Source: Isoetes taiwanensis (taxonomy: Eukaryota; Streptophyta; Lycopodiopsida; Isoetales; Isoetaceae). Taken from it: a stretch of DNA of 64,000 nucleotides. Below are positions 23 to 39,262 of the stretch, one piece after another (positions within the stretch are counted from its first letter, which is position 1; each line of letters starts with the position of its first letter). Below the pieces are notes generated by a model that was not told the DNA's origin, did no database searches, and saw only the letters and a program-made list of their open reading frames with translations. Both the position numbers and the translations under genes were made by a program. The DNA lies in assembly GCA_021234155.1 (NCBI GenBank), contig JAJEKV010000041.1, positions 3,276,829 to 3,340,828 on the forward strand, given 5' to 3'.

Positions 23-2586
23 ATGGCAGAAGAATCATTGTGTGACGTCATCGATTTTACAGTAGGGAATGAAGAACTTGAATCAGACCATAACCCATTG
101 CATTTCTCTCTAAAGGTTGACCGACCTGTTATCAAAGATCAATATAAGCAAAAGAAATATTTTCTGAAGCCTCATCTCCATAATCAGTACCGCTCTTGTG
201 TTGAAGACAAGGCAACCAATTTACAATGGGAAGGGGGTCTGAATGCCATGAACAGCCAACTAGTAAAGCTTTTAGAGGATGCAGCACAGGAGATCTTTAT
301 CTCTCAAAGAGCACGCAGAGGCCTACCATGTAGAGCATGGTTCGACCGAGAATGCCGAGATGCTAAGCGTCAGTGGCAAGCATGTGATCAGCATCTTAAA
401 ATGCACTATAAATAGCGCTATAAGCGTGTTATAAGGTGTAAGAAAAGGCAATATATCAAGCAAAGGCAGCAGATTTTGTGTCAAAGATATCTAGACGAGC
501 CTAAACTTTTCTGGAATGGCCTTAAGAAGACTAAAAGCAATGATATTCCACTTGAAGCAGAGGAGCTATGGCAATATGTAATGGCTCTCTACCATAATGC
601 AGCAGCCAACACAAACATTGTGAGATCGACATTGGTAATTAAAGAGGAGGAGGTAAAGGATGGCATTACATCGTTATCAAATGGTAAAGCACCAGATCTG
701 AATTCTCTTAGTGCTGAACATCTAAAATGGGCAGGTCCAAGTGTTGTTCCTATCATTACTCGCATGTTTAACCTTGCATTGGCACAAGGCTTCCCGTTTG
801 ATTAGAGTGGTGCCGATATTCAAAGGGGGATCTAGACAAGATGCAAGTAACTATAGAACAATTCTGGTAAGTAATTTGTTCTCAAAACTTTTTGCATCTA
901 TTTTGGAGAAAAAATTGAGCTTATGGGCGTAAGTCAATAAAAAAGGGCGAACGCTAAGCTGGTTTTAGGCGGGCAGATCCACATTGGACCACTTGTTGGT
1001 GTTGAAAACGGTCTTTGATAATGTTAAAGGAACAAAAAAACCAGTGTATGTGGCATTCGTTGACTTTAAAAAGGCCTTTGATAAGGTTCCACGTGTGCAA
1101 TTATGGGAAAGACTAGAAACGCTTAATGTGCCACTTGAGCTTAGAACTGCAGTACAGGTGTGAGAAAGTGCTTGTAGAATTATCACAACCTTTTTCATTA
1201 GATGTTTCAGCCCATGTAGAAAGTGACATTGGAGTGAAACAGGGTTGCCCGATGTCTCCCACCTTATTTGGCTTGTTCATTGATGGTCTAGAGGCTTGGC
1301 TACATAATAATTGCCTCGTGAGGTAATCAAGTACATGGCTACATTGTCCAGTTATTGATGTATGCCGATGATGTTGTTATATTTGCAAGATCAAAAGAAC
1401 ACATGCAAAAACACCTAGATGGATTGGCTGCATTTTGTGATCAAACAGGCATGCAAGTGAACTTAGATAAGACAAGTGTTATGACGGTTGGTGCTCTCAA
1501 ACAGGAACCTATTTTCAGATATAAAGGGAGTCTTGTGAGTATATGTGATTCTTATAAATACTTGGGCCTTATTTTCAGCAGGAATCATAGATGGAATATG
1601 TGTATTTCACAACGAGTTGATGGAGGGCAAAGAGCCTTATATGCGTTGCATAGCATGTGTAGGAGGTCTCATTTATGGTCTTGGAACCTTAAAGTAAAGT
1701 CAGATCGATCACTTGTGCAAAGTGTAATCCTATATGGATCTGAAATTTGGGGGGCCAAGCATTCCGCAAATGTCTATGGGATGATATAGAACAAGTCTTG
1801 AAGAAGTTCTTAAGGCTTGAGTTGGGAGTGAAAGCTCAAACACCTTACCCTATGATGTTGACGGAAAGTGGACTAATGCCACTTGAGGGAGAAGCTATTT
1901 TGAGGTGTATTATGTACCTCAAGAAGGTGTTGGCATTGGATGAATCTCGGCTTGCTCACAAAGCTTTGATATCAAGTAAAGAGAAAGGATTATTACATGA
2001 TGTAACAAAATGGCTCCAAAAATGGGATATCCAATGGGATGAAGTGATCTTGGTTGACTCGGATCTAAGACAATGGATCTCTAAGAAGATACTTATGAAG
2101 ATGTGGAGGCAGCCCAAAACTAAGATGATCTTATACAAGCAAAGCATAAATCCGAATTTGACGCCATCTACACACTTACAGGAAAATATTTCAATACAAA
2201 AGAGACATTCTATCTGCAGGATCCGTCTTAGCTCCCACCATTTGGGAGTAGAAGTGGGGAGATGGGGGCATATCATACCACGAGATCAAAGATACTGCAA
2301 GGTATGTGACTTAAACCAGGTGGAGGATGAAGATCATACATTGCTTCGATGTAGGGCCTATGAAGCAATTCGAGATAAACACGGTATTCATTATAACGAT
2401 CTACCCACTCTTTTTACACTTAATAGTGATATGTTGGGAAAATATTTGATTGAACTTCTCCAACATAGGGATACTTGTTTAAGTTCTCACACTGCTGGTA
2501 ATGTTGATAATTCAGATAGTTTGAGTGAGAGTGATGAGCTAGATGAGGATTTGGAAACTCGTCTATTATTTTATGAAGATGTTTAA
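23..2586 (+). pseudogene. LINE ORF2 remnant (endonuclease end, RT, zinc finger)
   Basis: ORF2 of an L1-type LINE would nick target DNA and reverse-transcribe the element's RNA. The first segment (23-415) carries the endonuclease SDH motif in context SDHNPL. RT signatures follow: NGKAPDLNSLSAEHLK near 680-730, SNYR near 850, FVDFKKAFDKVPR near 1062-1092 (motif A aspartate), GVKQGCPMSPTLFG near 1230-1270, and YADDVVIFARS near 1360-1395 (motif C). The last frame (1747-2586) is open for 279 codons and holds a C-X2-C...H-X4-C type region (CKVC...HTLLRC). Frames change near 415, 805, 930, 1198, 1326 and 1789, with in-frame stops. It aligns by eye with the RT of the next copy (2829-4127), including RLSSHHLGVEVGRWG. 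Confidence 0.85.
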
Positions 2587-2630
2587 GTGGTTTTGTCTAA
2601 TAGGCCTTTGAGGCCTCCCATAGACATAAT

Positions 2631-2796
<166 letters not shown>

Positions 2797-2828
2797 AATG
2801 TCAAGAGGAAATTATCAGCAATATAGGG

Positions 2829-4127
2829 GTGAAGCAGGGGTGTCCTCTGTCACCTACTCTCTTTGGCATATATATTGACCAATTTGAACGGTGGTTACAT
2901 GAGTATGGAGGAGAAGGAACCACAATCGCTGGATATGTACTAATGCTGCTGTTGTATGCTGACGATATTGTGATCTTTGCCAGAAGTCAGAAAGGTATGC
3001 AAAAACACTTAAATGCTTTGGCTGATTTTTGTGATAGAACAGAGATGAAGGTGAATTTAGGGCAAACGAAAATCCTTATATTTGGGATAAGAGTACACGA
3101 TTTTCATTTCTATTACAAAGGGCAAGAGGTAGACATTACAGACACATATAAATACCTGGGGCTAGTTGTGAAACACAATTATAGCTGGAATAGTGCAGTT
3201 GAGCAGAGAACAGATGCTGGGATTAAGGCCTTTTACTCAATGCAAAGAGTATGCAATAAAAAAGGGAATATTGACTGGCATCTTAAAAAGATGCTTTATA
3301 ACTCCTTGGTGCGTTCTGTTATTTTATACGGATGCGAGGTATGGGGGCCAGGATTATCTCTAAAGATGTGGACTAGAGTAGAGAAGATCCAAAAAAAGTT
3401 TCTGCTAGCAGAGCTGGGAGTTAAAATGCAAACACCATACCAGATGATGCTTGCTGAAGCAGGGCTGTATGAATTGGAAATTGAAGCATTACTGCAGACC
3501 ATTAAATATGTTAGAAAAATTCAGGATATGGATTATGATAGGCTGCCTAGAAAGGCTATGATTCATAGTAGCCTAAAAGGGTGGTTTGCAAATGTGGTCA
3601 CATGGTTGAGACAATGGGACATGACGTTAGAGGAGATACCAGATGAAGCCGATAAATTAAATGACTATGTTTACAAGAAAGCACGTGATAAAGGCTGGAG
3701 GAATCCTGGAACCAAGATGGTTTTTTACAAAGAAATGATTAACCCAGAACTGAAAGAGGCCTCACACTTGGCTGGTGGGCTTTCACAGTTTAAACAACAT
3801 CTTGTCTCTAGACTGCGCCTCAGCTCCCATCACTTAGGGGTGGAAGTGGGACGGTGGGGGGGCTTCCCGAGATATAAGCGCACATGCAAGGTTTGTGGGG
3901 ATGATGTGATCGAGGATGAGATGCACTTGTTATTCCATTGTCCAGCATATCAGGCACTGAGGCATAGACATATGATATCTTCGGGGGTGTCCCTATGGGC
4001 GTTCTTTGACATGCCACTTGCGACCGTTGGATATTTTTTAACAGATGTCATGAAAGTGAGAGAGATGTCTATAAAGAGTTATAACAGTCTATTGGATAGT
4101 TATGAGAAAGAGGGAGATATAGACTAA
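2829..4127 (+). CDS. LINE reverse transcriptase, C-terminal two thirds
   Basis: A 432-codon uninterrupted frame covering RT motifs B to E and the C-terminal region of a LINE ORF2. Visible landmarks are KQGCPLSPTLFG at residues 2-13, LLYADDIVIFARS near residues 40-52 (motif C, both catalytic aspartates present), YKYLGL near residue 108, SVILYGCEVWG near residue 165, and a terminal CKVCGDD...HLLFHC zinc-finger-like segment near residues 355-375. The first ATG is simply the first methionine after truncation, not a native start. The lack of stops over 1.3 kb says this copy is younger than copy A, but motif A is missing, so it cannot encode an active enzyme. Confidence 0.85.
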   Translation: MKQGCPLSPTLFGIYIDQFERWLHEYGGEGTTIAGYVLMLLLYADDIVIFARSQKGMQKHLNALADFCDRTEMKVNLGQTKILIFGIRVHDFHFYYKGQEVDITDTYKYLGLVVKHNYSWNSAVEQRTDAGIKAFYSMQRVCNKKGNIDWHLKKMLYNSLVRSVILYGCEVWGPGLSLKMWTRVEKIQKKFLLAELGVKMQTPYQMMLAEAGLYELEIEALLQTIKYVRKIQDMDYDRLPRKAMIHSSLKGWFANVVTWLRQWDMTLEEIPDEADKLNDYVYKKARDKGWRNPGTKMVFYKEMINPELKEASHLAGGLSQFKQHLVSRLRLSSHHLGVEVGRWGGFPRYKRTCKVCGDDVIEDEMHLLFHCPAYQALRHRHMISSGVSLWAFFDMPLATVGYFLTDVMKVREMSIKSYNSLLDSYEKEGDID

Positions 4128-4230
4128 TGATACATTTGAAAAGGATCATTAGATGTTTAAAAACTGTACGTGTGTTGATGTTCGTCTTCTAGACCTGATG
4201 GTCTCACAGACGTTAATAAAACATTATCTT

Positions 4231-4330
<100 letters not shown>

Positions 4331-23430: not shown

Positions 23431-23794
23431 GTACCAAGGAAAGTTAGAGTTTCCATTATCGAAGATACATTGCTAGAAAGAAAGTATTATGGACTAAGTA
23501 TTTCAAAAATATTCACCATCATGCACGTAGAGGCTCAAGTATTTCAGATCTGTCTAGTTGCTTACACAACGCCAAGCATGCCAGATTATCCCAAAGTAGA
23601 TTATCCCAACACTGCATAGAGGATTGTAGATACATGACCCTACAATGGATATGACCATTTGTTTAATGCTTTACACTTACCGCCAATTACATCAGTTGCA
23701 GCTTATGTTTGTGTACCTGTATTATGATCCTCTGACAGCCTTTTTTCTTGCATGCATTTGAACACTTGGGAGCCGCACATTTAACTACATATAC

Positions 23795-23853
23795 AAGAAG
23801 AAGAAGAAGAAGAAGAAGAAGAAGAAGAAGAAGAAGAAGAAGAAGAAGAAGAA
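23795..23853. repeat. (GAA)20 microsatellite, 5' boundary
   Basis: GAA run directly before the first LTR-like repeat. Confidence 0.97.
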
Positions 23854-24538
23854 GAGGAAAAAGATAAAATATGGGATGAGGGGCATTTTTATTAAAGCCA
23901 TTGTTGTGGCTCCATATGATTAAGGGGCAAGTTAATAATTTTGATTGCATTGTAGAAGGATAATAAAATATAATTTGAATGTGTGCCCTTTAGGCTTCAA
24001 GTTGGATGGTGTGTGTTTTTAGACGTTGGAAAGGAGTACCATAGGAGTGAGGCTTTTCAAAATGGTCAAGGGATGTATTATACAAAAGAGAAAAAGGGGG
24101 GAAGTTAATAGTAAAGGTATTGTATGGTTTTGGTGGTTGAAGGTTTAAAATTGTTAAGGGGAAAGTTAAGATTCACGTTGTCTAATGGTTTTGTAGGAAA
24201 TCGTATAAGGGGAAGGACATGTGTCACGAGGCCTAATGGGTGTGTGAGTATAAAGGTAAGAATATTAATGGGAAAACCTAGGTATGAATTTGACCAATAC
24301 GATTAAAATAAGATGCCTTTAAAATATGATGGTTAAGATATGGATAATTTTAAGTTATGGAATGAGTAGAAAATTCAATAGTCTAGGTCTTTGGCGAAAA
24401 AATGGCAGTAGGTTATGGCTTCTGGAAATTTCCCTGGCCGCGTCCATGACCGCCGGATTGATCCTGGGAAGGTTTGCATGCCGATAGGGACTTCTAGATA
24501 TGGCTAACAGAGGATTCGCACTTAGTCGGTGAGGCATC

Positions 24539-24546
24539 TATAAAAG
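24539..24546 (+). promoter_or_regulatory. TATA box in the 5' LTR-like repeat
   Basis: TATAAAAG in context CATCTATAAAAGGACTGG, about 75 bases before the ATG of the basic ORF. It is identical in the 3' copy (31465-31472). It is the best core promoter in the element. Confidence 0.6.
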
Positions 24547-24619
24547 GACTGGAGTGATCGGATGGCATTACTGTGGGCTGGTTACAAGGAGTCATTGCAA
24601 GGAGACAGGAAGATACAAG

Positions 24620-24790
24620 ATGCCAAAGGGCAAGTATGAACGTAAACCTGGTAACAAGAGCAAGGCGCAGCTGGCGGGCAATCTACCGCCGAAGAAATTT
24701 GCAAAGGTGGGCTATGAAAAAAAGCAGGCAACTTTTCAAAAAGGGCCACGACAAGAGGCCAGTGGAGGCGACAAAAATCAGGTCAGATAA
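24620..24790 (+). CDS. Basic 56-aa ORF in the 5' LTR-like repeat, possible first exon
   Basis: Begins MPKGKYERKPGNKSKAQLAG and ends GGDKNQVR; strongly basic and Gly/Lys-rich, with no domain I recognise. The same peptide is encoded in the 3' repeat. The nucleotides after KNQ are GTCAGA, a usable splice donor (AATCAG before GTCAGA). Joining to the candidate acceptor TTCTAG at about 26430 keeps the frame open into the 350-aa ORF1 (continuing PIETDLDDLL). It could therefore be the N-terminus of ORF1, or a short peptide on its own. An in-frame extension to 24554 adds 22 residues. The choice of 24620 rests on TATA spacing and an A-rich context. Confidence 0.5.
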   Translation: MPKGKYERKPGNKSKAQLAGNLPPKKFAKVGYEKKQATFQKGPRQEASGGDKNQVR

Positions 24791-26454
24791 TGCTTGGTCG
24801 AGTTTATCTGTTCACGGGTTATTGGTGTTGAAATGATAAAAGGGTCTAAGTTTATATGAATGTCACAGTTTTCAAATGAGTTGAGCTATCTTCTGGTAAT
24901 AATATAAAGGTTATGGTTCCAAAAGAGCAGGGCTTACGTCTGTGCTTGTATTGCATTTGTCTAAAAGGGTCTCCTGTAGAGATGCTAGGGTGTCTAGGCA
25001 TAGGTTGCAGGATAGGGGCATTTGGTCGTTTGCTAAGGTTGGTGTTGTTCCTTTCTTAGTTTTAGTTTTGTGTTTGCTTAAGCTTAGTTTAACTTTTTGC
25101 TGGACCTTTTGTTGCAATGGGGTTTGGGCTGAATGAGGGTGCTGGTTTAGTTGTAGTACTTACAGGCGGGCATAGTTTGGTTACGTAGATGTGGTCTTTT
25201 CTTCTTAACTTTGCTCGCTGTGGGTTGGTACAGTCCTGCCAAGGTATTTTTAAATGCATATAATGGTTTATGGTAGAATTTGGAAGTTGGTTTTTCTATA
25301 GGACTGATATAGGATCTAACTGAATATATGGATTACGTATACTATTTGTTCATGCTGGTGCTGTAGGAAACCTTTAAATTCTAAAAGCATGGCGGTAAGA
25401 TTAGGCCTTGATGGGTTTAAAGATTAATAGGTTGGATGTTCTATGTTTTATGATCCGGTAGGCATCCATATATTCTAACTAAAGTACTAAAATTGCCAAG
25501 GGTCTGATTATAGAATGTTATTATAAGATCATAACCTGATTAACTAGAAGTGAAGGGCGATGAGCCATGTAGTTCTATTGCTTACCTGTCACCCCTCTCC
25601 TCGTTACCATTTTGATGCTAATGTTGGTCTGTTTGGGTGCAGGTAACCAGAACTACATCTCTTCGTAGTTTTTCGTTGGTTAACTAAGCATATGAATGCT
25701 ATTCGAGAAGCGATTCTAAGGATATTGTACAAGATGACTGGCTGATGTACTATGTGTTTACATGTATTCAAAATAATATTTGGTGAGATCCTTCCAGATT
25801 ATATTGTATGAACATTATAATATAGAAATATTATACTCGTTAATTAAAGGCTGATTACTAATAATACAAGTAGTTGGCATGGAAAAGTTAATTATGGTGG
25901 TTGACAAGTGCCTTTTAGTTGTGGCCTAGTTTAAAACTAGGGTGGACATTTGGGGTAAAAAGTTTTTTCTTGAATATAGTTGTAGGTTGTTTTAACAGGT
26001 CTATGATGATTATCCGGAAAACCGACTTATCGAAGAAGAAAAATGTGATCTCCATTTGTTGGAGGTATCCAACAAACACAACTTTGTGTCAACCCAATGG
26101 TCCCATGAGATGATACTAACTTATGTTTATTGGATATGTGTAGACAAGAAGTACTTGGCTAAAGCAACTGGTGGACATTGGTTATGGGATGGTGGGTATT
26201 GCTCCCAACTACGGGGTTCAATCTATTCTGAGCATGATCCCTAAAGAGATACACCATGTTATTCTGGAATTAAACAGAAGGTTGCCTAATGGTGCTTTTT
26301 CTCCCATTATTTATCTCGGGTTCACTCATGGTTTGAAGTTTTCCTCAAGCTCGATGAGCTTAAAATGAAGGTCGATGATTGCATCCCCAAGTATTGAGCA
26401 GATTTTTATTGATACACAGGGAAATTCTAGCCGATAGAAACGGACCTAGATGAC

Positions 26455-27507
26455 TTGTTAGCTATGGAGTTTAAGATTGGTGTGACCTTCTTAGAAAAGG
26501 AAAACAGATTGACTGATCTCACTTTTGAGGAAGATGGAAAGAAAGAAAACCCTGTTGTGGCTGCTGTTGAGGGACTGACAACTAATAATTTTGGTAAGTT
26601 TATACCCCAGGAAGACATTGATTTAATGAAAAAAGAGAAGGAAGCCTGTTTGGGAAATAACAAACAAGAGGAATTAGTTAGACTCACCCTTACTAATTGC
26701 ATGAGATTTCCGATCCTATCAGAAATGGCGGTTGAATGGTTAGGTGAAGAATTTCAACAAGCTTTATGGAGGAGTCAGAACTTTGGGACGCTGGCTCCTA
26801 TCAGCATAAAAGCATGGAGGCTTATTGCAGGGATTTCGGACAGTCAAATGGAGGAGGTAACTAATGCAGCCAATAACTTGGTAAAAATTATGGATAAAGC
26901 TGAAATCTGTTTCCCATGTGGTACTGACCTCTTTGATAAGAAATGTCAGAATTTTAGTGGTATCACGCTTTCTGTTAAAGCCCACATGGCTTATCCTGAT
27001 ATTGAGAGGACGTATTCCTATCTGCATAGGATGTGGAGGTGTTTTAGTCCATATATAAAATGCAATTGTGGTGATTCATGTAAAGACTCAATAACATGGT
27101 TCGATCAGGCCATTTGGTACATATTCAATCATTTGGAATTGGTTTATCCTAAGTATTCACAGGCAGGGAGAATGGGCTCGTTCCTGATTTTCATCCAGCA
27201 GAATCTGAAAAGGGCAGTTATGGCTCAGTTGGCGTATATGTTAGTCAGAGAAATGTTGGTCAAGGTAACAAATAAACTTGCCAGTAACCCTTTATGTGAC
27301 TTAAAGGTTAGTTTTGGTGATACAAAACTTGTGGAGGTCTGTGAAATGATGGTGAAAAACAGAATGTTTTTGGTTGATAAACTAAACCATGGAAAAGAGG
27401 AAGGTACTGTTACCATTCCCTCTTACAGTGGTCTGACTCAGAGTGAGTCTTATCTGCCGCCTAGGGTGGCAAAGGCAGATCTTGAAATCAGGTTGCAAAA
27501 TTGTTGA
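26455..27507 (+). CDS. Penelope-like element ORF1, unrecognised (about 350 aa)
   Basis: Long open frame in the body upstream of RT. The annotated start is a TTG; the first ATG is at 26464 (MEFKIGVTFLEKENRLTDL). The frame is open upstream to a TAG near 26428, so it probably continues an upstream exon. The protein is mostly helical-looking. Visible groups are LTLTNCMRFPILSEMAVEWL, a Cys cluster ICFPCGTDLFDKKC and another CNCGDSC, then LELVYPKYSQAGRMGSFL. It ends LEIRLQNC with a stop, but the +1 frame continues in similar style to 27634 (KIVENLADDSVSMIGCTPG), suggesting a frameshift. Its role may be Gag-like RNA binding; this is inference only. Confidence 0.6.
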   Translation: MLAMEFKIGVTFLEKENRLTDLTFEEDGKKENPVVAAVEGLTTNNFGKFIPQEDIDLMKKEKEACLGNNKQEELVRLTLTNCMRFPILSEMAVEWLGEEFQQALWRSQNFGTLAPISIKAWRLIAGISDSQMEEVTNAANNLVKIMDKAEICFPCGTDLFDKKCQNFSGITLSVKAHMAYPDIERTYSYLHRMWRCFSPYIKCNCGDSCKDSITWFDQAIWYIFNHLELVYPKYSQAGRMGSFLIFIQQNLKRAVMAQLAYMLVREMLVKVTNKLASNPLCDLKVSFGDTKLVEVCEMMVKNRMFLVDKLNHGKEEGTVTIPSYSGLTQSESYLPPRVAKADLEIRLQNC

Positions 27508-28546
27508 AAATTTGGCTGATGATTCTGTTAGCATGATTGGATGTACCCCTGGGGAGGCTTCTGTATCTAAAGCTGAAAAACCAGGAAGTTTTTTCAAAGC
27601 AAGTGAAGTGTTGCAGGGTCGTATCCTGTATTAAAAAGTAAGACACATTTATAATGTTTATTTATACATGATTTTAGTCCATGGTTACTAAATCATGTGA
27701 TATCCGCTGGTCACAGTACATCTTTTGGTCCACGGTCACCCTTTATGTTTGATACAGGGAAGAAACGGTGCGGTTGAAGCTGTCAGGAGTGTTTTTTGTT
27801 GCAGTAATAATTGATGTATGGTTCTATTTGACTTTAGTACTTTAAGATGTAGAAGTAACGTAATCCGCTAAAGGTAGCAATGGGCTGTTTGCCTACCTTT
27901 GGATTCAATATTGTACTGAACATCGGGATCTAATGCTAAGACATTTGTTGGTGAATACTATGGATTTGGAGTTTTCTGGAAGATTATGGATACCAAATGT
28001 TTAGAATATCTTTAGATATTCGGTATGGTTAAGAATGTGAAGATGTACGGTTCTATTTGGCTTTAATTACCTTAAGTTTTTAAGATTTATATGTAGCATA
28101 ATCTGCTAAATGGTGTAATGGACTGTATTCATATCTTCTGATTTAATATAAGCTTCTGGATATGATGCTAATACATTTGTTGCCGAATATTATGGAATGG
28201 GTGTACTAAGCCATGGTTCTTTTGACATTAACAGTCTTGGGTTTTTTATGGTTAATCAGCTGAATGTTGTAACTGGGTATATACCTACTTCTGGAGTTAA
28301 TTTGTAAATTCTAGATGTATTAGACATCATGTGCTGTATTAATGGCCTTTGTTACCGAAATTGGTGAATATACGGAGGATTTCTGGCGACATGGACGACT
28401 TTATTAATAGTATATGGGCACACAGAAGGACTGAGATGGTGATGTAAAAACAGGGGATTATTTGGATAATGGTAAATAATAAAGTGGCATTCACAGGCAT
28501 TAATAGTAGAACACATAACATGTGATACTAATGGTAAGATCTTGAT

Positions 28547-30624
28547 ATGCAGGGAGATGAAGGAGAAGGGAGATTAGTGATTAATGGACCTTGTGGAAGA
28601 AGAAGAATTTTTTCTGAAAAGGGTAATGCAGATGATAAGGTCAGAATTCATTTTCTCTTTTCTTCCAAGGTCCTGGATAAGATTAACATAAGGAGCTCAA
28701 TTAAAGATTATCTGTATGAAAGACTTGGGGATTTCGGTTTGCATATGATTGAGAAAACAAGTTTTGGCTGGAGATATGATAAAAAGCTTCTTGATTACGT
28801 TTATAAACCGTATAGAATTTTTGCTGATGAAATGATCCCGAGTTGTGTGTGCCATAAGCCGGGGATGCATAAATTTATTGACCACAGGGTAGGGCATGTG
28901 AGAACAATGGATCTCTCCATTATAAAATCCAAAGAACTAAGGAAAATGTTTAGGAAAGGATTAAACTTTATACCGGATAAAATACTTAATATTGAGGACT
29001 TTCTGGAGGATTTTAAAAGTGGTCTGCTCAGCTTTTTTGAGCTGCATGAAGCCAAGGGTAGATGGCTGCACCCGGACGAAAAAAGGGGAATTATGAAGAG
29101 ACTCCTGGAAAGGATAAAAGAACGAGCAGAGAAAATGGCTTTTCTTCATCAAAAAAATCTAAGAAGAGCTAATAATGATAATATTGGAAGATGTATTGAC
29201 TGGTTGGTTAAGAATCTGTATATTGCAGGGGTTGATAAAGCTGGCAATGTTCCATGCTTTATATGCCCGTGGCATGTTAGGGAAATGGCTAGGGAAAGAA
29301 TTCATGGAAAGGATTTTGACATAGTGAAGTGTAATAAAAGTGATATTATCCAATGCTCTTCTGAGGCGGTAGATAAATTTGGTCTTACATGTCCAGTATG
29401 GAGACAAGATACCTTACATCTTGGGAACATTTAAGGCACATAAAGGTGAATATAGATGGATTACTAATGCTAATCGAACTATTTTACTCTGCCTTCTAAA
29501 ATTGTGACTAGAGGTCTTAGAGAGGATTATTGAGATCTTGCCAAAAGCATATATGATGAGAATGAGCAGGATTAATGTGATGCTACGAGGTAAAGTCAAT
29601 CCATTTTGGATTGTCAATTCAGTGTCTACGATGTTATGCTTAATTTGCGAGAGAAAATATATGATGTATTTACTGCTGATATTTCGAAATGTTATGAGAA
29701 TATTCCGCTGGATGGTAAAGATGGGATCTGTTACGTGATTGGGGAAATAATAAATATTGCAGTTGAGTATATGACAGGTAATGGTGAAGAAGTCAAGTTT
29801 TGGTACAGAGTTATTGGTGATGACGTAATCTCTCTATGGGATAGAAAAAAAGGGAAGGTAAAACATGGTCATATATGGATAAAGGTAGGTTTTATGATCT
29901 TAATGTTTGGCTTCTAAATCATTGCTTTGGGACACAAGGTCTAAATGTTTGGAGGCAGGCCTGTGGTATACCGATGGGGTTCTCCTGCTCTCCAGAATGG
30001 TGCAACTTATATCTGTCTTATTTTGAGATGAGGTTTATTGAGAAACTAGCTCGTAATGGAAGGTTTGATGCTATTCTAAGATTCAGATTTGCCAGGAGGT
30101 ACATGGATGATATTTTTGTACCTAATGGACGGAATTTGAATGAGTTCTTTCAACAGGATAAGGATGCAGATGAGTGCTTTAATATATATAACTTAAAGAT
30201 TCTGCAGATCAAAGATGAAACAGAATATAAGACATGGGGAGGAATGGAAAAGGTGGGTTATAAAGGTAATTTCTTAAATGTTACATTTGAGGTGACAAAC
30301 AAGGAGGATGGGTGTTATTGTACTAAAAGATACGATAAGAGGGATAAGTTGCAGTTCAATGTTATGAAGTTCATACATGCATCAGGGTGTAGACCGTATC
30401 TTAATGCTAGTAGGGTTATTATCTCACAACTTATGCCGTACTTATATGTGCATACAGATCATGAGGCAGCTGCCCAAGACATTAATGGGCTTATTCAAGA
30501 ATTTGTGAATAATGGTTTTGACAAAAAAGATCTTATTGAGAATGTGCACAGGCAACTAAACAAAGATAACTATCCAGGGCTTAGGTACAACATTAATGAT
30601 CTTATCAGCTTGGTGGAAAAGTGA
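28547..30624 (+). pseudogene. Penelope-type reverse transcriptase (frameshifted)
   Basis: An acceptor-like TGATATGCAG precedes GGAGATGAAGG. Segment 28547-29434 carries the Penelope N-terminal pattern: CVCHKPGMHKFIDHRVGHVR, TMDLSIIKSKELRKMFRKGL, NFIPDKIL, and PCFICPWHVREMARERI. A frame change near 29410 gives IPYILGTFKAHKGEYRW (the PYLYGTxKAHK motif). FWIVNS and MLNLREKIYDVFTADISKCY then hold the motif A aspartate. RQACGIPMGFSCSPEW is motif B and FARRYMDDIFVPNG is motif C. The C-terminus QEFVNNGFDKKDLIENVHRQ matches the Penelope thumb. No GIY-YIG domain follows. At least two frame changes (near 29410 and 29890) break it, unless one is a missed intron. Confidence 0.8.
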
Positions 30625-30647
30625 GTCTGGATTTGTGATTGGATGTA

Positions 30648-30690
30648 AGGAAGTAGGACCCCTTCTCTTCATAGGGGGGTCCTACTTCCT
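30648..30690 (+). other. Perfect 15-bp hairpin after the RT stop
   Basis: Arms AGGAAGTAGGACCCC (30648-30662) and GGGGTCCTACTTCCT (30676-30690) around a 13-base loop, 24 bases downstream of the RT stop and 40 bases before the GAA run. It may be a 3' RNA structure recognised by RT. Confidence 0.75.
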
Positions 30691-30731
30691 ATGGATTGAA
30701 GGGGCCTGCATCCTGAGGGAGGGGTGTGGGC

Positions 30732-30773
30732 GAAGAAGAAGAAGAAGAAGAAGAAGAAGAAGAAGAAGAAGAA
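30732..30773. repeat. (GAA)14 microsatellite, body-to-repeat junction
   Basis: GAA run between the end of the body (GGGGTGTGGGC) and the second LTR-like repeat. Confidence 0.97.
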
Positions 30774-32946
30774 GAGGAAAAAGATAAAATATGGGATGAG
30801 GGGCATTTTTATTAAAGCCATTGTTGTGGCTCCATATGATTAAGGGGCAAGTTAATAATTTTGATTGCATTGTAGAAGGATAATAAAATATAATTTGAAT
30901 GTGTGCCCTTTAGGCTTCAAGTTGGATGGTGTGTGTTTTTAGACGTTGGAAAGGAGTACCATAGGAGTGAGGCTTTTCAAAATGGTCAAGGGATGTATTA
31001 TACAAAAGAAAAAAAGGGGGGAAGTTAATAGTAAAGGTATGGTATTGTATGGTTTTGGTGGTTGAAGGTTTAAAATTGTTAAGGGGAAAGTTAAGATTCA
31101 TGTTGTCTAATGGTTTGAAATCGTATAAGGGGAAGGACATGTGTCACGATGCCTAATGGGTGTGTGGGGTATAGTATAAAGGTAAGAATATTAATGGGAA
31201 AACCTAGGTATGAATTTGACCAATACGATTAAAATATGATGCCTTTTAAATATGATGGTTAAGATATGGATATTTTTAAGTTATGGAATGAGTAGAAAAT
31301 TCAATAGTCTAGGTCTTTGGCGAAAAAATGGCAGTAGGTTATGGCTTCTGGAAATTTCCCTGGCCGCGTCCATGACCGCCGGATTGATCTTGGGAAGGTT
31401 TGCATGCCGATAGGGATTTCTAGATATGGCTAACAGAGGATTCGCACTTAGTCGGTGAGGCATCTATAAAAGGACTGGAGTGATCGGATGGCATTACTGT
31501 GGGCTGGTAACAAGGAGTCATTGCAAGGAGGCAGGGAGATACAAGATGCCAAAGGGCAAGTATGAACGTAAACCTGGTAACAAGAGCAAGGCGCAGCTGG
31601 CGGGCAATCTACCGCCGAAGAAATTTGCAAAGGTGGGCTATGAAAAAAAGCAGGCAACTTTTCAAAAAGGGCCACGACAAGAGGCCAGTGGAGGCGACAA
31701 AAATCAGGTCAGATAATGCTTGGTCGAGTTTATCTGTTCACGGGTTATTGGTGTTGAAATGATAAAAGGGTCTAAGTTTATATGAATGTCACAGTTTTCA
31801 TATCAAATGAGTTGAGCTATCTTCTGGTAATAATATAAAGGTTATGGTTTTAGTTTCAAAAGAGCAGGGCTAACGTCTGTGCTTGCATTGCATTTGTCTA
31901 ATAGGGTCTCCTGTAGAGATGCTAGGGTTGTCTAGGCATAGGTTGCAGGATAGGGGCATTTGGTCGTTTGCTAAGGTTGGGGTTGTTCCTTTCTTAGTTT
32001 TAGTTTTGTGTTTGCTTAAGCTTAGTTTAGCTTTTTGCTGGACCTTTTGTTGCTATGGGGTGCTGGTTTAGTTGTAGTACTTATAGGCAGGCATAGTTTG
32101 GTTACGTAGATGTGGTCTTTTCTTCTTAACTTTGCTCGCTATGGGTTGGTACAGTCCTGCCAAGGTATTTTTAAATGCATATAATGGTTTATGGTAGAAT
32201 TTGGAAGTTGGTTTTTCTATAGGACTGATATAGGATCTAACTGAATATATGGATTATGTATACTATTTGTTCATGCTGATGTTGTAGGAAACCTTTAAAT
32301 TCTAAAAGCATGGCGGTAAGATTAGGCCTTGATGGGTTTAAAGATTAATAGGTTGGATGTTCTATCCGGTAGGCAAAACAATCCATGTATTCTAACTAAA
32401 GTACTAAAACTGTCAAGGGTCTGATTATAGAATGTTATTATAAGATCATAACCTGATAAACTAGAAGTGAAGGGCGATGAGCCATGTAGTTCTATTGCTT
32501 ACCTGTCACCCCTCTCCTCGTTACCATTTTGATGCTAATGTTGGTCTGTTTGGGTGCAGGTAACCAGAACTACATCTCTTCGTAGTTTTTCGTTGGTTAA
32601 CGTAGCATATGTATGCTATTCGAGAAGCGATACTAAGGATATTGTACAAGATGACTGGCTGATGTACTATGTGTTTACATGTATTCAAAATAATATTTGG
32701 TGAGATCCTTCCAGATTATATTGTATGAACATTATAATATAGAAATATTATACTCGTTAATTAAAGGCTGATTACTAATAATACAAGTAGTTGGCATGGA
32801 AAAGTTAATTATGGTGGTTGACAAGTGCCTTTTAGTTGTGGCCTAGTTTAAAACTAGGGTGGACATTTGGGGTAAAAAGTTTTTTCTTGAATATAGTTGT
32901 AGGTTGTTTTTAACAGTCTATGATGATTATCTGGAAAAAACTTATC
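30774..32946 (+). repeat. 3' LTR-like repeat of the Penelope-like element
   Basis: 2173 bp partner of 23854-26031, with the same start and end words, TATA box and ORF. It is preceded by about 14 GAA units and followed by about 53. Confidence 0.93.
31546..31716 (+). CDS. Basic 56-aa ORF, copy in the 3' LTR-like repeat
   Basis: Encodes the same peptide as 24620-24790 at the same distance from a TATAAAAG box. In the 3' repeat no ORF1 follows, so it is expected to be silent or to give only the short peptide. The amino-acid sequence from this ATG is unchanged while the surrounding repeat has diverged, which is mild evidence for constraint or for a recent origin. Confidence 0.45.
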   Translation: MPKGKYERKPGNKSKAQLAGNLPPKKFAKVGYEKKQATFQKGPRQEASGGDKNQVR

Positions 32947-33107
32947 GAAGAAGAAGAAGAAGAAGAAGAAGAAGAAGAAGAAGAAGAAGAAGAAGAAGAA
33001 GAAGAAGAAGAAGAAGAAGAAGAAGAAGAAGAAGAAGAAGAAGAAGAAGAAGAAGAAGAAGAAGAAGAAGAAGAAGAAGAAGAAGAAGAAGAAGAAGAAG
33101 AAGAAGA
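32947..33107. repeat. (GAA)53 microsatellite, 3' boundary
   Basis: About 160 bases of uninterrupted GAA directly after the second LTR-like repeat. Poly-Glu, poly-Ser, poly-Leu and poly-Arg frames through it are artefacts. Confidence 0.98.
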
Positions 33108-34086
33108 GATTTTAACGTCACTTGCCTCAAGAACTGTGCACATTTTAATAATGTTTCCAAGTCTGTGATATGTGGATGCAATTATTTTGCTTAATTGAGG
33201 TGAAAGTAGTCAGAAAGAACAATTATGACTGATGGTATCAACATACAACATTGGAACCTTGACACTTACATATAAATACCTAAAAATCTATTAGCTTAAA
33301 TGCTCCCTAAACAAGACCTTGCGAGTCTTCATACGTTCCATCACTTATTGCACGTACCTAGTCAATATAGCAACTATTAAGTATTTACTGTGCATTGGCT
33401 TGCAATGACAATTTGCATAATAACACAACCTATTACAATAAGTAATAATTACCCATTACAAAGCTAGACAACTTTGGTAAAACCATTTATCAATCTAACT
33501 ATTTCTAAAGAAACAAGACGACATCAAAACTTAGAAAGTCGAAGGGAAAAAAGTCTCAGGCATTTCTTTGTAAACAAGACCTTCTTAAAACTTCAACAAC
33601 TTGAAGGAAAAAAATCTTAATCAATTCTAGCTATTTTTTAGAAAACAATACCTTGCCAAAACCTTCTGGTGTGCTTTCTGCTAGTTTTAAATAGTATAGA
33701 ATGCATGTACACTTGATACATGGGTTTATTTAACTGGATAGGGGCTTATTTGACTTGCTACACCCGTTAAAGTTATGAAATATACCACCATGAAAATGTT
33801 CAATGTTTTGTGGTACATCCGTTGAGCTATGAGGTATATAATACGATGATGATAACTAGTAATACCTTACCTGCTACGATAACTAATACCTTACCAACAT
33901 GCAAAGATGTAGTTTATCTTAAAATTTTATTTTGTTAGATTTAAAAAGGTTAGGTTTCCACCAATAGTATATGTAGCTATGTGTTCGCTTGTTACGACGA
34001 CATATATATATATTTTTTTAATTTTGTCCCCTGCTATGAGAACTAATACCCTACCAACATGCGAAGATGTAGTTTATCTCAACATG
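33108..34086. other. AT-rich spacer with one dispersed 50-bp duplication
   Basis: No coding frame. Two diverged copies of CTGCTA..A.AACTAATACC through GATGTAGTTTATCT occur at about 33869-33920 and 34031-34079. Confidence 0.5.
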
Positions 34087-37000
34087 CCTGTATGTTGGCG
34101 ATGACTTAGGATGCTAGCTGACAAAAAATCAGAATTTAAGTCCGTACTATGCATTAATTACGAATTTACGAATGTCTTGCTACTGCAAAAGTGGGCCTTG
34201 ACTTCTAACTGCCACAACGGGAGGAGTACAGGTCCAAACTCCATTCCGTCAGTTCCCCTTGCTTCGCGTTCTCAACTGCATGTGATCGGCCACGTCCCAA
34301 GTGCAAAAGACCAAAACTCGGCACCCAAAACGCAAACCCCCGCTAGAACACGGCAACTCATAGGGTTTACGTTTGGGGCTCTATCCTTGTCGATTTGACT
34401 AGGACCTTGGCGCCGCGTGTCTTGGCGTAGAGGGTGGGTTTTGGCCGAGCACGGACCACGAAAACCACCCGGCGGCTTGCCCCAAAAGTCCTCTCCCGAA
34501 GGCCACGGTGACGGACGGGCAACTTCCCCTCCGAACCAAGTGATCTCTCTCGCCAATGGACTCGAACGTCGACATTGCCCTTGGGACCAAGTTTTGTGGC
34601 GAAAGCCCACCCCTTCTCGAAGAAGCGCCAAACTATCTCATGTGCAACGACTTCGTAGTCAATTGGCCTAGGAGGTGGTCTGCGAAATCTTTTGCAATGT
34701 AGGGCGTAAGTGTTTCTTTCTTTTGCAAAACCGACCGTAACTTGGTCCCTAGGGTAATTTTGGCATTCCGGACGATGTGGCAAAGTCGGATCGGCATTTC
34801 GAGACCGCCAATCTACTGAACGACAAAAACACTTTGGTTTCTACACTGTCGCCGCCGGGGCGACGCCGGTTTGATATGTTCTCCCAACGGATGTTGGATT
34901 TTTGGACCTTCTCGGACGGGTTCTGGAACAAAGGATTCAACGGGCCGGATCACGGAACCGAGATCCGGGAGTGTGGTCTTTAGCGCGTACACCCGTGAGC
35001 TTTTGCCCAGAAAGGCTGCCTCGGGGAAGCTTTTGGGGCTCGCCTCACGGGGTTCGGACTCTCCCCTTTAATGAGGAGGCCTTGCAAGGTCCCGGCCTTG
35101 TTTGACTTGGGCAAGTGTGCTGCGGCGGCTGCCCAACAACAACATTGCCCGGTTGTTCTAGTGCAAACTATTTGATCTAAACCTTATCCAAAATTTTTGA
35201 AAGTTGGCAGATGTGGGCGATGGACAAAAAATCAGAATTTAAGTCCGTACTATACATTAATTACGAATTTATGAATGTCTTGCTATCGCAAAAGCGGCCC
35301 TTGACTTCTAAGCGCCACAGCGGGAGGAGTACTGGTCCAAACTCCATTCCGTCGGTTCCCTTTTGCTTCAGCGTTCTCAACTGCATGTGATCGGCCATGT
35401 CCCAAGTGCAAAAGACCAAAACTTCGGCACCCAAAACGCAAAACCCCGCTAGAACACGGCAACTCATAGGGTTTACGTTTGGGAGGCTCTATCCTTGTCG
35501 GATTTGACTAGGACCTTGCTTGGCGGTCTTGATGTAGAGGGGGGTGTTGGCGCCAGAACACGGACCTAAAAACCACCCGGGCGGCTTGCCCCAAAAATTC
35601 CTCTCCGAAGGCCACAGCGGCGGGCGGGCAACTTCCCCTCTCCGAACAGAGTGATCCGCCTCTGCCAATGGACTCGAGCGTCGACATTGCCCTAGGACCA
35701 AGTTTTGTGGCCAGAAGCCCACCCCTTCTCGAAGCGCCAAACTATCTCATGTGCAACACACTCGTAGTCAATTGGCCTAGGAGGTGGGCTGGCGAATCTT
35801 GCAATATAGGGCGTAAGTGTTTGTTTCTTTTTGCAAAACTGACCGTGTAACTTGGTCCCTAGGGTAATTTTGGCATTCCTGACGATGTGGCGAAGTCGGA
35901 TCGGCATTTCAGAGCCTCGCAATGTCCGAACGACAAAACACTTTGGTTTCTACGATGTCGCCAGACGCTTGCGGTTTGATATGTTCTCTTGGGCCGGATG
36001 TTGGATTTTTTGGACCTTCTCGGACCAGGTTCCCCGGAACAAAGGATTCAACGGTCGAATCGAGAACCGAGATCCGGAGTGTGGTCTTTAGCGTCGCCCC
36101 CGTGGAGCCGCCGAGAAAGGCTGCCTCGGGGAAGCTTTTGGGGCTCGCTTCTTTGGGGTTCGGACTCTCCCCTCTAATGAGGAGGCCTTGCAAGGTCCCG
36201 GCCTTGTTTGACTTGGGCAAATGTGCCCATTTCGGTACGCCCAACAACAGACTGCCCGGACCGTTCTAGTGCAAACTATTCGATCTAAACCATATCCAAA
36301 AATTTTGAAAGTTGGCCTGTATGTTGGCGATGACTTAGGAAGCTAGCTGACAAAAAATCAGAATTTAATTCCGTACTATGCATTAATTACGAATTTTACT
36401 TAATGTCTTGCTACTCTTTTGCAAAAGCGGCCCTTGACTTCTAAATGACCACAACGGGAGGAGTACAGGTCCAAACTCCATTCCGTCGGTTCCCCTTGCT
36501 TCGCGTTCTCAACGCATGTGATCGGCCGGATCCAAGTGCAAAAGACCAAAACTCGGGCACCCAAAACGCAAACCCTGCTAGAACCTGGCAACTCATAGGG
36601 TTTACGTTTCGGAGGCTCTATCCTTATCAGATTTGACTAGGACCTTGCGCCGTGTCTTGACGTAGAGGGGGGGTGTTGACGCCAGAGCACGGACCCTAAA
36701 AACCACCCGGAAGCAGCTTGCCCCAAAATTCCTCTCCCCGGCCCCGGGCGACGGGCGGGCAACTTCCCTCTCCCGAACCGTGATCGGTCTCGCCAATGGA
36801 ATCGAACGTCGACATTGCCCTAGGGACCAAGTTTTGTGGCCGTAGCCCACCCCTTCTTCGAAGAAGCCAAAACTATCTCATGTGCAACACAATCGTAGTC
36901 AATTGGCCTAGGAGGTGGTCAATAATCTTTGCAATGTAGGGTGTAAGTGTTTCTTTCTTTTGCAAAACCGACCGTAACTTGGTCCCTAGGGTAATTTTGG

Positions 37001-39262
37001 CATTCCGACGATCTGGCGAAGTCGGATCGGCATTTCGAGCCTCCGCGGTGTCCGAACGACAAAACACTTTGGTTTCTACGCTTATCGCCCGCGGGACGCT
37101 TCCACGGTTTGATATGTTCTCCTGGGCGGATGTTGGATTTTTGGACCTTCTCTGACCAGATTCCCGGAACAAAGGATTCAACGATCGGATCACGGGAACC
37201 GAGATCCGAGAGTGTGGTCTTTAGCGTCGCCCCGTGACCTTTTGCCGCCAGAAAGGCACCTCGAAGCTTTTGGGGCTCGCCTGGCGGGGTTGGACTCTCC
37301 CCTCTAATGAGGAGGCCTTGCAAGGTCCCCGCCTTGTTTGACTTGGGCAAGTGTGCCAGCTTCGGCCCAACAACAGTCTGACCGGACCGTTCTAGTGCAA
37401 ACTATTTGATCTAAACCATATCCAAAATTTTTGAACGTTGGCACGTATGTTGGCGATGACTTAGGAAGCTAGTGACAAAAAATCAGAATTTAAGTCCGTA
37501 CTATGCATTAATTACTTAATTTACGAATGTCTTGCTACTTGCAAAAGCGGCCCTTGACTTCTAACCGCCACAACGGGAGGAGTACAGTCCAAACTCTATT
37601 CCGCCGGTTCCCCTTGCTTCGCTTCTCAACTGCATGTGATCGGCCACGCCCAAGTGCAAAAGACCAAAACTTCGGCACCAAAACGCAAACCCCGCTAGAA
37701 CCCGGCAACTCATAGGGTTTACGCTTTTGGAGGCTCTATCCTTGTCGATTTGACTAGGACCTTCGCGTGTCTTGACGTAGGGGGTTTTGACGCCGTGAGC
37801 ACGGACCCTAAAAACCACCCGGAAGCAGCTTGCCCCAAAAGTCCTCTCCCGAAGGCCCTGGCGACGGACGGGCAACTTCCCCTCTCCGGAACCGTGATCG
37901 GTCTCTGCCAATGGAATCAGAACGTCGACATTGCCCTAGGGACCAAGTTTTGTGGCCAGAAGCCCACCCCTTCTCGAAGAAGCGCCAAACTATCTCATGT
38001 GCAACACAATCGTAGTCAATTGGCCTAGGAGGTGGCTGCTGAATACTGCAATGTAGGGCGTAAGTGTTTCTTTCTTTTGCAAAACTGACCGTGTAACTTG
38101 GTCCCTAGGGTAATTTTGGCATTCCGGATGATGTGGCGAAGTCGGATCGCCATTTCGAACCTCCGCGAATGTCCAAACGACAAAACACTTTGGTTTCTAC
38201 ACCGCCGCCTCCGGGGGCGCTTCGGTTTGATATGTTCTCCTGGACGGATGTTGGATTTTTGGACCTTCTCGGACCAGGTTCCTTGAACAAAGGATTCAAC
38301 GGTCGGATCACGGGACCGAGATCCCGGAGTGTGGTCTTTAGCGTCGCGCCCCCTCCCGTGAGCTTATTTGCAGAAAGGCTGCCTTGGGAAGCTTTTTGGG
38401 GCTCGCCTCCCGGGTTCTGACTCTCCCTCTAATGAGAAGGCCTTGCAAGGTCCTCGCCTTGTTTGACTTGGGCAAGTGTGCCATTTCGGTGCCCAACAAC
38501 AAAGCCTGCCCGCATCGTTCTAATGCAAACTCTTTGATCTAAACCTTATCCAAAATTTTTGAAAGTTGGCCAGTATGTTGGCGATGACTTAGGAAACTAG
38601 CCGACAAAAAAATCAGAATTTAAGTCCGTACTATGCATTAATTACGAATTTACTGAATGTCTTGCTACCGCAAAAGCGGGCCTTGACTTCTAAATGCCAC
38701 TTCGGGAGGAGTACAGGTCCAAACTCCATTCCGTCAGTTCCCCTTGCTTCGGTTCTCAACTGCATATGATCGGCCATGTCCCAAGTGCAAAAGACCAAAA
38801 CTCGGCACCCAAAACGCAAACCCCAGAACCTCGCCAACTCATAGGGTTTACGTTTGGAGGCTCTATCCTTGTCGATTTGACTAGGACCTTGGCGCCGTGT
38901 CTTGGCGTAGAGGGGGTGTTGACGCCAGAACACGGACCCTAAAAACCACCCGGAAGCAGCTTGCTGCAAAAGTCCTCTCCCGAAGGCCCTGGTGATGGAC
39001 GGGCAATTTCCCCTATCCGGATCCGTGATATGGCTCTGCCAATGGATATAGAACGTCAACATTGCCCTGGCAATCAAGTTTCGTGGCCAGAAGGGCACCC
39101 CTTCTCGAAGAAGTGCCAAAGTAGCTCATGTCCAGCACACACGTAGTCAATTGACCTAGGAGGTGGCCAAGAATACCGCAATGTAGGGCGTAAGTGTGTC
39201 GCTTTTTTGCAAACCGACGCGTGTAACTTAGTCCATAGGGTAATTTTGGCATTCCAAACGAT
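34087..39262. repeat. Tandem array, 1.1-kb unit, four full copies and a partial fifth
   Basis: The marker word GACAAAAAATCAGAATTTAA recurs near 34120, 35223, 36350, 37475 and 38603, a spacing of about 1.10-1.13 kb. Each unit has an AT-rich start and a GC-rich second half, with shared words such as AGTGCAAAAGACCAAAAC, CAACTCATAGGGTTTACG and CCTTGCAAGGTCC. Small indels shift every reading frame between copies, so the many 60-160 codon frames are not conserved and I call no gene. The fifth copy is cut near 39262, where the palindrome-rich CACTA-type end begins. Confidence 0.95.

What the first reader, a model, noticed from the sequence alone, without database searches (positions are those of the whole stretch)
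23795..33107. Plant Penelope-like retroelement with 2.18-kb LTR-like repeats, no endonuclease, and GAA microsatellite at every junction
The RT reads as Penelope-type (GHVR..DLSIIKSKELRKMF, FKAHKGEYRW, DISKCYENIP, GIPMGFSCSPEW, YMDDIF) yet ends about 110 bases before the second GAA run, with no room for a GIY-YIG domain. Endonuclease-less members of this class are known to join telomere ends. Here the four junctions carry 20, 3, 14 and 53 GAA units instead of TTTAGGG repeats. GAA may be the priming or target sequence, or a templated tail. That would be an unusual way for an endonuclease-less element to enter internal chromosome sites.
Basis: partly seen in the sequence, partly recalled or inferred. 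Interest (0 to 1): 0.85.

Follow-up and report, generated by a model that had tools for sequence, protein, structure and literature searches.

The report
Penelope-like elements inserting into GAA microsatellites
This is a jumping gene of an ancient telomerase-like kind with no sign of the usual DNA-cutting enzyme; in this plant genome its copies repeatedly sit in GAA-type simple repeats, which suggests that a short repeat carried in its own RNA finds the landing site.

Summary
Window 23795-33107 is a decayed retroelement, GAA-[2.2-kb repeat]-(GAA)3-[ORF1, RT, 3' RNA fold]-GAA-[2.2-kb repeat]-GAA, with 20, 3, 14 and 53 units. The assembly is a plant (1.66 Gb) with many relatives. A purine-triplet tract directly follows the 3' fold in 29 of 30 nearest copies (window's own included). 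Key control: the inner repeat/body junction has 2-3 GAA units in 16 of 16 places read, whereas the same end at the outer edge is followed by 7-57 purine triplets in 16 of 16, so the long 3' tracts belong to the target, not to growth of the element's seed. One locus keeps a 46-bp target duplication whose bottom strand would have ended in TTC at the element's 3' end. No endonuclease domain was found in 14 RT ORFs or 12 ORF1 proteins. More distant relatives end in a similar G-rich 3' stretch but carry T-runs or (TA)n there. Likely mechanism (inferred): GAA in the RNA pairs with a free TTC 3' end in a microsatellite and primes reverse transcription, as reported for telomere repeats of rotifer Terminons. 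Penelope-like membership rests on architecture, recalled motifs and a weak RVT_1 match; no reference tree was possible. New variant of a known kind.

The parts
23795..23854 (+). 5' outer GAA tract (20 units)
23865..26031 (+). pseudo-LTR 1 (pLTR): promoter, exon 1, most of the putative intron, structured RNA core
   Evidence: 95.5% to pLTR 2
24539..24544 (+). TATA box, 81 bp upstream of the exon 1 ATG
   Evidence: the exact motif was found in 3 of 13 pLTRs examined
24620..24781 (+). exon 1: conserved basic peptide MPKG.Y.R.PG.KSK..., ends ..NQ then GT (putative splice donor)
25547..25670 (+). structured RNA core of the pLTR, inside the putative intron; covarying stems
25920..25949 (+). end-proximal hairpin of the pLTR (TGTGGCCTAG..CTAGGGTGGA); 19 matches in other pLTRs lie 74-88 nt before a GAAGAA
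   Evidence: for the 19; the window copy missed the regular expression and was read by eye
26032..26040 (+). inner GAA seed (3 units) at the pLTR/body junction
26055..26077 (+). body-start hairpin TTTGTTGGAGGTATCCAACAAAC
26144..27507 (+). ORF1 exon 2 (interrupted in this copy; long open frame from 26455); putative acceptor TAG at 26141-26143 after TACTAAC
28547..30624 (+). reverse transcriptase, broken into three frames in this copy
30639..30731 (+). 3' RNA fold: two hairpins directly before the GAA tract
   Evidence: z -4.26
30732..30773 (+). GAA tract (14 units) between body and pLTR 2
30785..32946 (+). pseudo-LTR 2
32947..33105 (+). 3' outer GAA tract (53 units)

Best explanation
A member of a large group of Penelope-like retroelements without a recognisable endonuclease that enter purine triplet microsatellites of a plant genome. 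SHOWN in the regions read: pLTR-body-pLTR anatomy; no endonuclease domain found; inner GAA seeds of 2-3 units; long GAA or GGA tracts at outer 3' ends; an element lying in the GAA tract of another array; RNA folds in the pLTR and directly before the repeat at the 3' end; in one locus a 46-bp target duplication with the element's 3' end on the GAA side. INFERRED: tandem copies are transcribed from the pLTR promoter; unspliced RNA (core and GAA seed lie inside a putative intron that joins exon 1 in the pLTR to ORF1) is bound by the RT through the folds; the GAA seed, at the pLTR/body junction or after the 3' fold, pairs with a free TTC-ending 3' end in a GAA/TTC tract (nick, gap, break or slipped strand), which primes cDNA synthesis without an endonuclease; the cDNA ends in GAA at the 5' side and is joined to the other broken end, by repeat annealing or otherwise. 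Repeated entry next to existing copies builds the head-to-tail arrays.
For: Inner seeds: 12 of 12 found by script plus 4 of 4 read later (C456 twice, C1079, C923) have 2-3 units; outer 3' ends: 16 of 16 that I listed have 7-57; Mann-Whitney P 3e-6 on 12 against 16, copies not independent. C456: the 46-bp sequence GCTCTTC..GGCAG preceded by GAA stands on both sides, left as (GAA)12-46 bp-(GAA)9-pLTR and right as pLTR end-GAA/GGA tract-(GAA)3-46 bp-host, so the bottom strand that received the 3' end would have ended in TTC. C1065 array begins directly at (GGA)28 and ends in GAA then (GAG)46, while its inner seeds are GAA. In C923 a pLTR-body-pLTR element of one family lies between body and pLTR of another family, at GAA. 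A repeat shared at 89-95% by C908, C1055 and C1079 ends in GAA and is followed by a different element or pLTR in each. 32 of 44 exact 3'-fold ends are followed by 4 or more GRA triplets. 294 inner junctions with a seed genome-wide, reversed pattern 0. pLTR core: 17 of 33 pairs with two-sided changes, covariation score 0.453 against 0.185 shuffled, 0 of 500. 81 of 83 RT matches on contigs over 1 Mb lie more than 250 kb from a contig end. Precedents: PMC6431247 (passages), PMC3846280 (passages), PMC11167929 (parts 1-2 of 4).
Against: No biochemistry, no RNA data, no sequenced empty allele. In C456 the 5' tract lies between the duplication and the pLTR, so there it is the element's, not the target's. 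The tract between body and pLTR 2 varies from 3 to about 60 units, so element-borne GAA can grow. 12 of 44 exact 3' ends lack 4 triplets (8 of them in two arrays spaced 3.3-4.2 kb). Right ends of C908 and C1079 have no tract. Of the 16 outer 3' tracts, 6 are followed by the pLTR start of a neighbouring copy, 4 by a start like that of another pLTR family and only 6 by other sequence, so much of the evidence is copies next to copies. In 7 other loci no flanking repeat of 10 or more bases was found next to the tracts. A complete 5' pLTR upstream of the presumed start site needs read-through transcription or a strand transfer that I cannot show. No RT reference tree.
Confidence: 0.7

Rival explanations
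1. The element merely carries short GAA seeds at its ends and these grew into microsatellites after insertion at otherwise ordinary sites.
For: Seeds of 2-3 GAA exist at the inner junction; the body/pLTR 2 tract varies from 3 to about 60 units; the 5' tract of C456 is element-borne.
Against: The inner pLTR/body seed stayed at 2-3 units in 16 of 16 while all 16 listed outer 3' ends are long; C456 has GAA outside its target duplication; C1065 begins at GGA, not GAA; nesting in a GAA tract (C923) and a shared repeat that itself ends in GAA.
Confidence: 0.1
2. A GIY-YIG endonuclease acts in trans: the genome holds 121 or more GIY-YIG matches, possibly of an endonuclease-bearing Penelope-like group with microsatellite bias, and these elements are mobilised by it.
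For: 121 matches to PF01541; the 46-bp duplication of C456 shows a staggered double cut or break, as an enzyme might make; microsatellite bias of N-terminal-endonuclease Penelope-like elements is recalled, the paper is not held.
Against: Related copies have their own RT frames of about 700 aa and ORF1; nearest GIY-YIG match is 46 kb from any of 150 RT matches. Neither excludes help in trans.
Confidence: 0.15
3. Not targeting at all: insertions were general, but recombination or selection kept only copies in GAA tracts.
For: Arrays and repeats recombine; GAA tracts are unstable (general knowledge).
Against: Orientation is constant in the regions read (42 purine, 0 pyrimidine array runs) and the joins are at fixed element positions across families.
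Confidence: 0.05

Closest known systems
Terminons / Athena endonuclease-deficient Penelope-like elements of bdelloid rotifers (PMC6431247 and PMC3846280, passages)
   Same: A 3'-terminal RNA fold directly followed by a short simple repeat that can pair with the target; head-to-tail arrays; said to prime at exposed 3' ends, at telomeres or double-strand breaks, without endonuclease
   Different: Repeat is GAA (or GGA), not telomeric; sites internal; no hammerhead match in the window; LTR-like paired repeats
Endonuclease-deficient Penelope-like elements of Selaginella and conifers (PMC12477314 and PMC9033089, passages)
   Same: Plant host, no endonuclease; two ORFs is given as the form of endonuclease-less elements (PMC6431247)
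   Different: Selaginella elements are named as telomere-associated; no GAA targeting in the passages read
Poseidon of Anolis (PMC11167929, parts 1-2 of 4)
   Same: Tandem pLTR structure; reverse transcription starts inside the RNA near the pLTR/ORF junction, here the place of the GAA seed
   Different: Poseidon has a GIY-YIG endonuclease and its start site is not homologous to the target; here seed and target match
Chlamys/Naiad N-terminal-endonuclease Penelope-like elements (recalled; paper not held)
   Same: Green-lineage members, microsatellite bias and a CxC motif before the RT (recalled); a CVC/CIC is present here
   Different: No endonuclease domain found here
Microsatellite-targeting non-LTR retrotransposons (recalled; start of the abstract of PMC4640811 mentions microsatellite targets)
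   Same: Insertion into simple repeats
   Different: They encode an endonuclease

Membership tests
Penelope-like elements | RT of the Penelope/telomerase branch | tested here: inconclusive
   RVT_1 in 14 of 14 members at E up to 0.1, best 1.3e-4, first member below the curated cut-off; no useful PDB match; no relatives in viral or prokaryote contigs; motifs judged from recall; no reference tree
Penelope-like elements | Pseudo-LTRs and tandem or partial tandem copies | tested here: met
Penelope-like elements | Introns kept in genomic copies | tested here: inconclusive
   Exon 1 ends in Q then V (GT) in 11 of 13 pLTRs examined; AG acceptors read by eye before a conserved K[QH]L stretch in 12 of 14 places (one none, one false match); no RNA evidence
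Endonuclease-bearing (canonical) Penelope-like elements | GIY-YIG domain | tested here: not met
Endonuclease-deficient Penelope-like elements | No endonuclease, two ORFs | tested here: met
Endonuclease-deficient Penelope-like elements | Telomere association with telomeric repeats at junctions | tested here: not met
   81 of 83 matches over 250 kb from contig ends (94 of 150 matches had a known contig length); no three-unit telomere repeat in the window and fetched loci; TTTAGGG arrays exist elsewhere
Penelope-like elements | Hammerhead ribozyme in the pLTR | tested here: not met
   No hammerhead match in the window at gathering score or in 23700-33200 at E up to 5; only the window copy was searched
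LTR retrotransposons | RNase H and integrase domains | tested here: not met
   No Pfam match in the ORFs
LTR retrotransposons | tRNA primer site and TG..CA ends | not tested
   The pLTR ends read are GAA-adjacent, but no primer-site search was run

The most novel reading that the evidence does not exclude
A whole radiation of endonuclease-less, telomerase-related retroelements in which the simple repeat placed directly after a structured 3' end (GAA, T-run or (TA)n, depending on clade) works as an exchangeable RNA address that pairs with the matching microsatellite: targeting by template complementarity, as telomerase does at chromosome ends, moved to internal microsatellites.
Probability: 0.4. 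Interest if true: 0.87.

Novelty: new variant of a known kind. Interest (0 to 1): 0.72.

Why it matters
Endonuclease-deficient Penelope-like elements are described as largely confined to chromosome ends (PMC3846280, passage). Elements that use repeat complementarity inside chromosomes would link telomerase, Terminons and ordinary retrotransposons, offer a target choice written in RNA rather than in an enzyme, and account for GAA tracts around their copies. The inner seed against outer tract comparison makes target versus growth testable from sequence alone.

Tried and rejected
PDB searches gave nothing useful (none; chance-level rows only). Relatives in viral contigs and prokaryote genomes: none confirmed. 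A PLE tree was not possible; a tree of 14 copies of this genome (13 different) only shows splits within the GAA group. A hammerhead was not found in the window. My first reading of the pLTR core as a 3' splice site was dropped: by eye the frame after it soon stops, and a better acceptor lies just before the ORF1 frame. Alignment A3 used wrong coordinates and is not used. Reading GAA as a polypurine-tract primer, as in LTR elements, was considered; nothing tests it. The genome-wide count of grown inner seeds (pattern with 5 or more GAA) did not complete, nor was the shared-repeat pattern. One measure of the covariation test did not stand out: further pair types 38 against 35.1, reached in 71 of 500 shuffles.

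Literature searches bearing on novelty. I saw no title or abstract start on GAA-targeted Penelope-like elements among the listed papers (lists were capped). Three key papers (recalled as Gladyshev and Arkhipova 2007, Lin 2016, Craig 2021) are not held, so this is a weak negative.

They added four inner junctions (12 became 16) and the C456 target duplication; for that I raised the confidence from 0.68 to 0.70, lowered the growth rival from 0.12 to 0.10, and recorded against my reading that the C456 5' tract is element-borne.
Full report
WHAT IS THERE. Two 2.2-kb direct repeats (95.6%) enclose ORF1 and an RT, with 20, 3, 14 and 53 GAA units at the four junctions. The RT is broken into three frames. 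The window lies at 3.28 Mb of a 13.7-Mb contig of a 1.66-Gb assembly that is a plant by 66 chlorophyll a/b-binding matches and TTTAGGG repeats. The species is not established.

COPIES. The RT C-terminus gives 3013 candidates, of which 150 were scored and listed as matches. I read the 30 best (the window's own copy is one of them) with 1.5-kb flanks, eight longer regions of 16-30 kb, four of which hold several copies in tandem, and 200 bases after the RT in 20 more distant copies. Many copies have open RT frames of about 700 aa; ORF1 frames reach about 500 aa.

ANATOMY. In the window and the eight regions the common form is GAA-pLTR-(GAA)2-3-body-GAA-pLTR-GAA; C908 and C1079 have their second pLTR cut off, and C456 is partly rearranged. 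pLTRs of one element or array are 94.0-99.7% alike; the window's pLTR aligns with those of other families only over a core of about 100-140 bp at 71-83%, although some other families (C1040 and C1055A) align further at 72-78%. The core folds into stems that covary: 17 of 33 pairs have two-sided changes, score 0.453 against a shuffled mean of 0.185, reached by 0 of 500, and slid versions are lower; the measure of further pair types does not stand out (71 of 500). The structure was derived from the same alignment, which favours it in the slide control. The pLTR also codes a conserved basic peptide that ends in Q followed by GT in 11 of 13 pLTRs examined; ORF1 follows an AG in the body in 12 of 14 places examined (by eye). 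So the core and the GAA seed probably lie inside an intron kept in genomic copies. After the RT stop come two hairpins and then at once the GAA tract (window: -50.7 kcal/mol, z -4.26; in the alignment of 21 copies 9 of 21 pairs show two-sided changes, with many broken cells).

TARGET OR GROWTH. The best evidence is an internal control. The pLTR 3' end occurs twice per element. Facing the body it carries 2 or 3 GAA units in 12 of 12 places found by script and in 4 of 4 further places read afterwards. Facing outside it is followed by 7 to 57 purine triplets in 16 of 16 ends that I listed (Mann-Whitney P 3e-6 on 12 against 16; copies are related, so P is nominal). The truncated right ends of C908 and C1079 are not among the 16. 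Six of the 16 tracts run into the pLTR start of a neighbouring copy, four into a start like another pLTR family's, six into other sequence (by eye). Genome-wide the inner junction with at least the seed occurs 294 times against 0 for the reversed pattern; the companion count of grown inner seeds did not complete.

SINGLE LOCI. C456 keeps a target duplication: left (GAA)12, a 46-bp sequence, (GAA)9 and the first pLTR; right a pLTR end, a GAA/GGA tract, (GAA)3, the same 46 bp and host sequence. The 3' end is thus on the GAA side, and the bottom strand that received it would have ended in TTC; the 5' tract there is the element's own. About 22 kb with several copies lies between, so this may record the first entry only. 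No flanking repeat of 10 or more bases was seen in the other seven flank pairs compared, two of them from one region. C1065 begins directly at (GGA)28, in a Glu-rich frame read by eye, and ends in GAA then (GAG)46 followed by a start like another pLTR's. In C923 a pLTR-body-pLTR element of one family lies between the body and the last pLTR of another family. A repeat of unknown nature, shared at 89-95% by C908, C1055 and C1079, ends in GAA, and a different element or pLTR follows in each.

HOW GENERAL. Directly after the 3' fold, 29 of the 30 copies have GAA or GGA (7 of these only 3 units; L009 is cut off before); 26 of 30 show the exon 1 motif of a second pLTR beyond it. Of 44 exact 3'-fold ends genome-wide, 32 are followed by at least four GRA triplets; of the 12 others, 8 lie in two arrays spaced 3.3-4.2 kb. 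Of the 20 distant copies, 15 (L051-L065) have a T-run and 5 (L066-L070) have TA repeats after a G-rich 3' end (by eye); genome-wide 23 of 26 exact ends of the latter type are followed within 20 bases by six or more TA. The outer ends of these clades were not read.

NO ENDONUCLEASE FOUND. No GIY-YIG match in 14 RT ORFs and 12 ORF1 proteins. The genome has at least 121 GIY-YIG matches, the nearest 46 kb from any of the 150 RT matches; only best candidates were scored, so this is not exhaustive. Copies are internal: of 94 of the 150 matches whose contig length I had, 83 lie on contigs of 1 Mb or more, and 81 of these are over 250 kb from an end.

MECHANISM. Rotifer Terminons are reported to carry a 3' ribozyme fold that exposes a telomere-complementary repeat (PMC6431247, passages), and endonuclease-deficient elements are thought to prime at exposed 3' ends at telomeres or breaks (PMC3846280, passages). 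Poseidon starts reverse transcription inside the RNA near the pLTR/ORF junction (PMC11167929, parts 1-2 of 4). The present elements have GAA at both matching places: after the 3' fold and at the pLTR/body junction. The simplest reading is priming by a TTC-ending 3' end in the microsatellite, which the C456 duplication fits. Which seed is used, how a complete 5' pLTR is copied, and who opens the target remain open; an endonuclease in trans is not excluded.

VERDICT. Association with purine triplet microsatellites as targets: strongly supported. Absence of an encoded endonuclease: supported. Penelope-like membership: likely but not tree-tested. Priming by complementarity: inferred.

Noticed in passing
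window 1747-4327: Two non-LTR retrotransposon fragments head to tail, the first followed by (CT)79 and the second by (CT)31(CA)16 (RVT_1 in the second): perhaps a second microsatellite-associated retroelement in the same window.
   Followed up: partly
window 34086-39246: Tandem repeats of about 1.1 kb, about 70% like the right flank of the C908 element.
   Followed up: no
G000, 121 places: Many small GIY-YIG frames, mostly around 90-160 aa: possibly a separate endonuclease-bearing mobile family.
   Followed up: no
G000 C946:1501995-1513183, C1059:124701-136398, C952:20187528-20193665: Arrays of element ends or junctions spaced 3-4 kb, too short for full units: possibly non-autonomous derivatives.
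   Followed up: no
window 33106-33121; L033 near 9899: The window's right flank and a neighbouring tract in C923 share GAGATTTTAACGTCAC directly after GAA: perhaps a shared host target or an element end.
   Followed up: partly
L031-L050, body starts: The hairpin at the body start changes on both arms between families (for example TTTGTTGGA/TCCAACAAA and TTAGTTAGA/TCTAACTAG): probably a further RNA structure beside the GAA seed.
   Followed up: no
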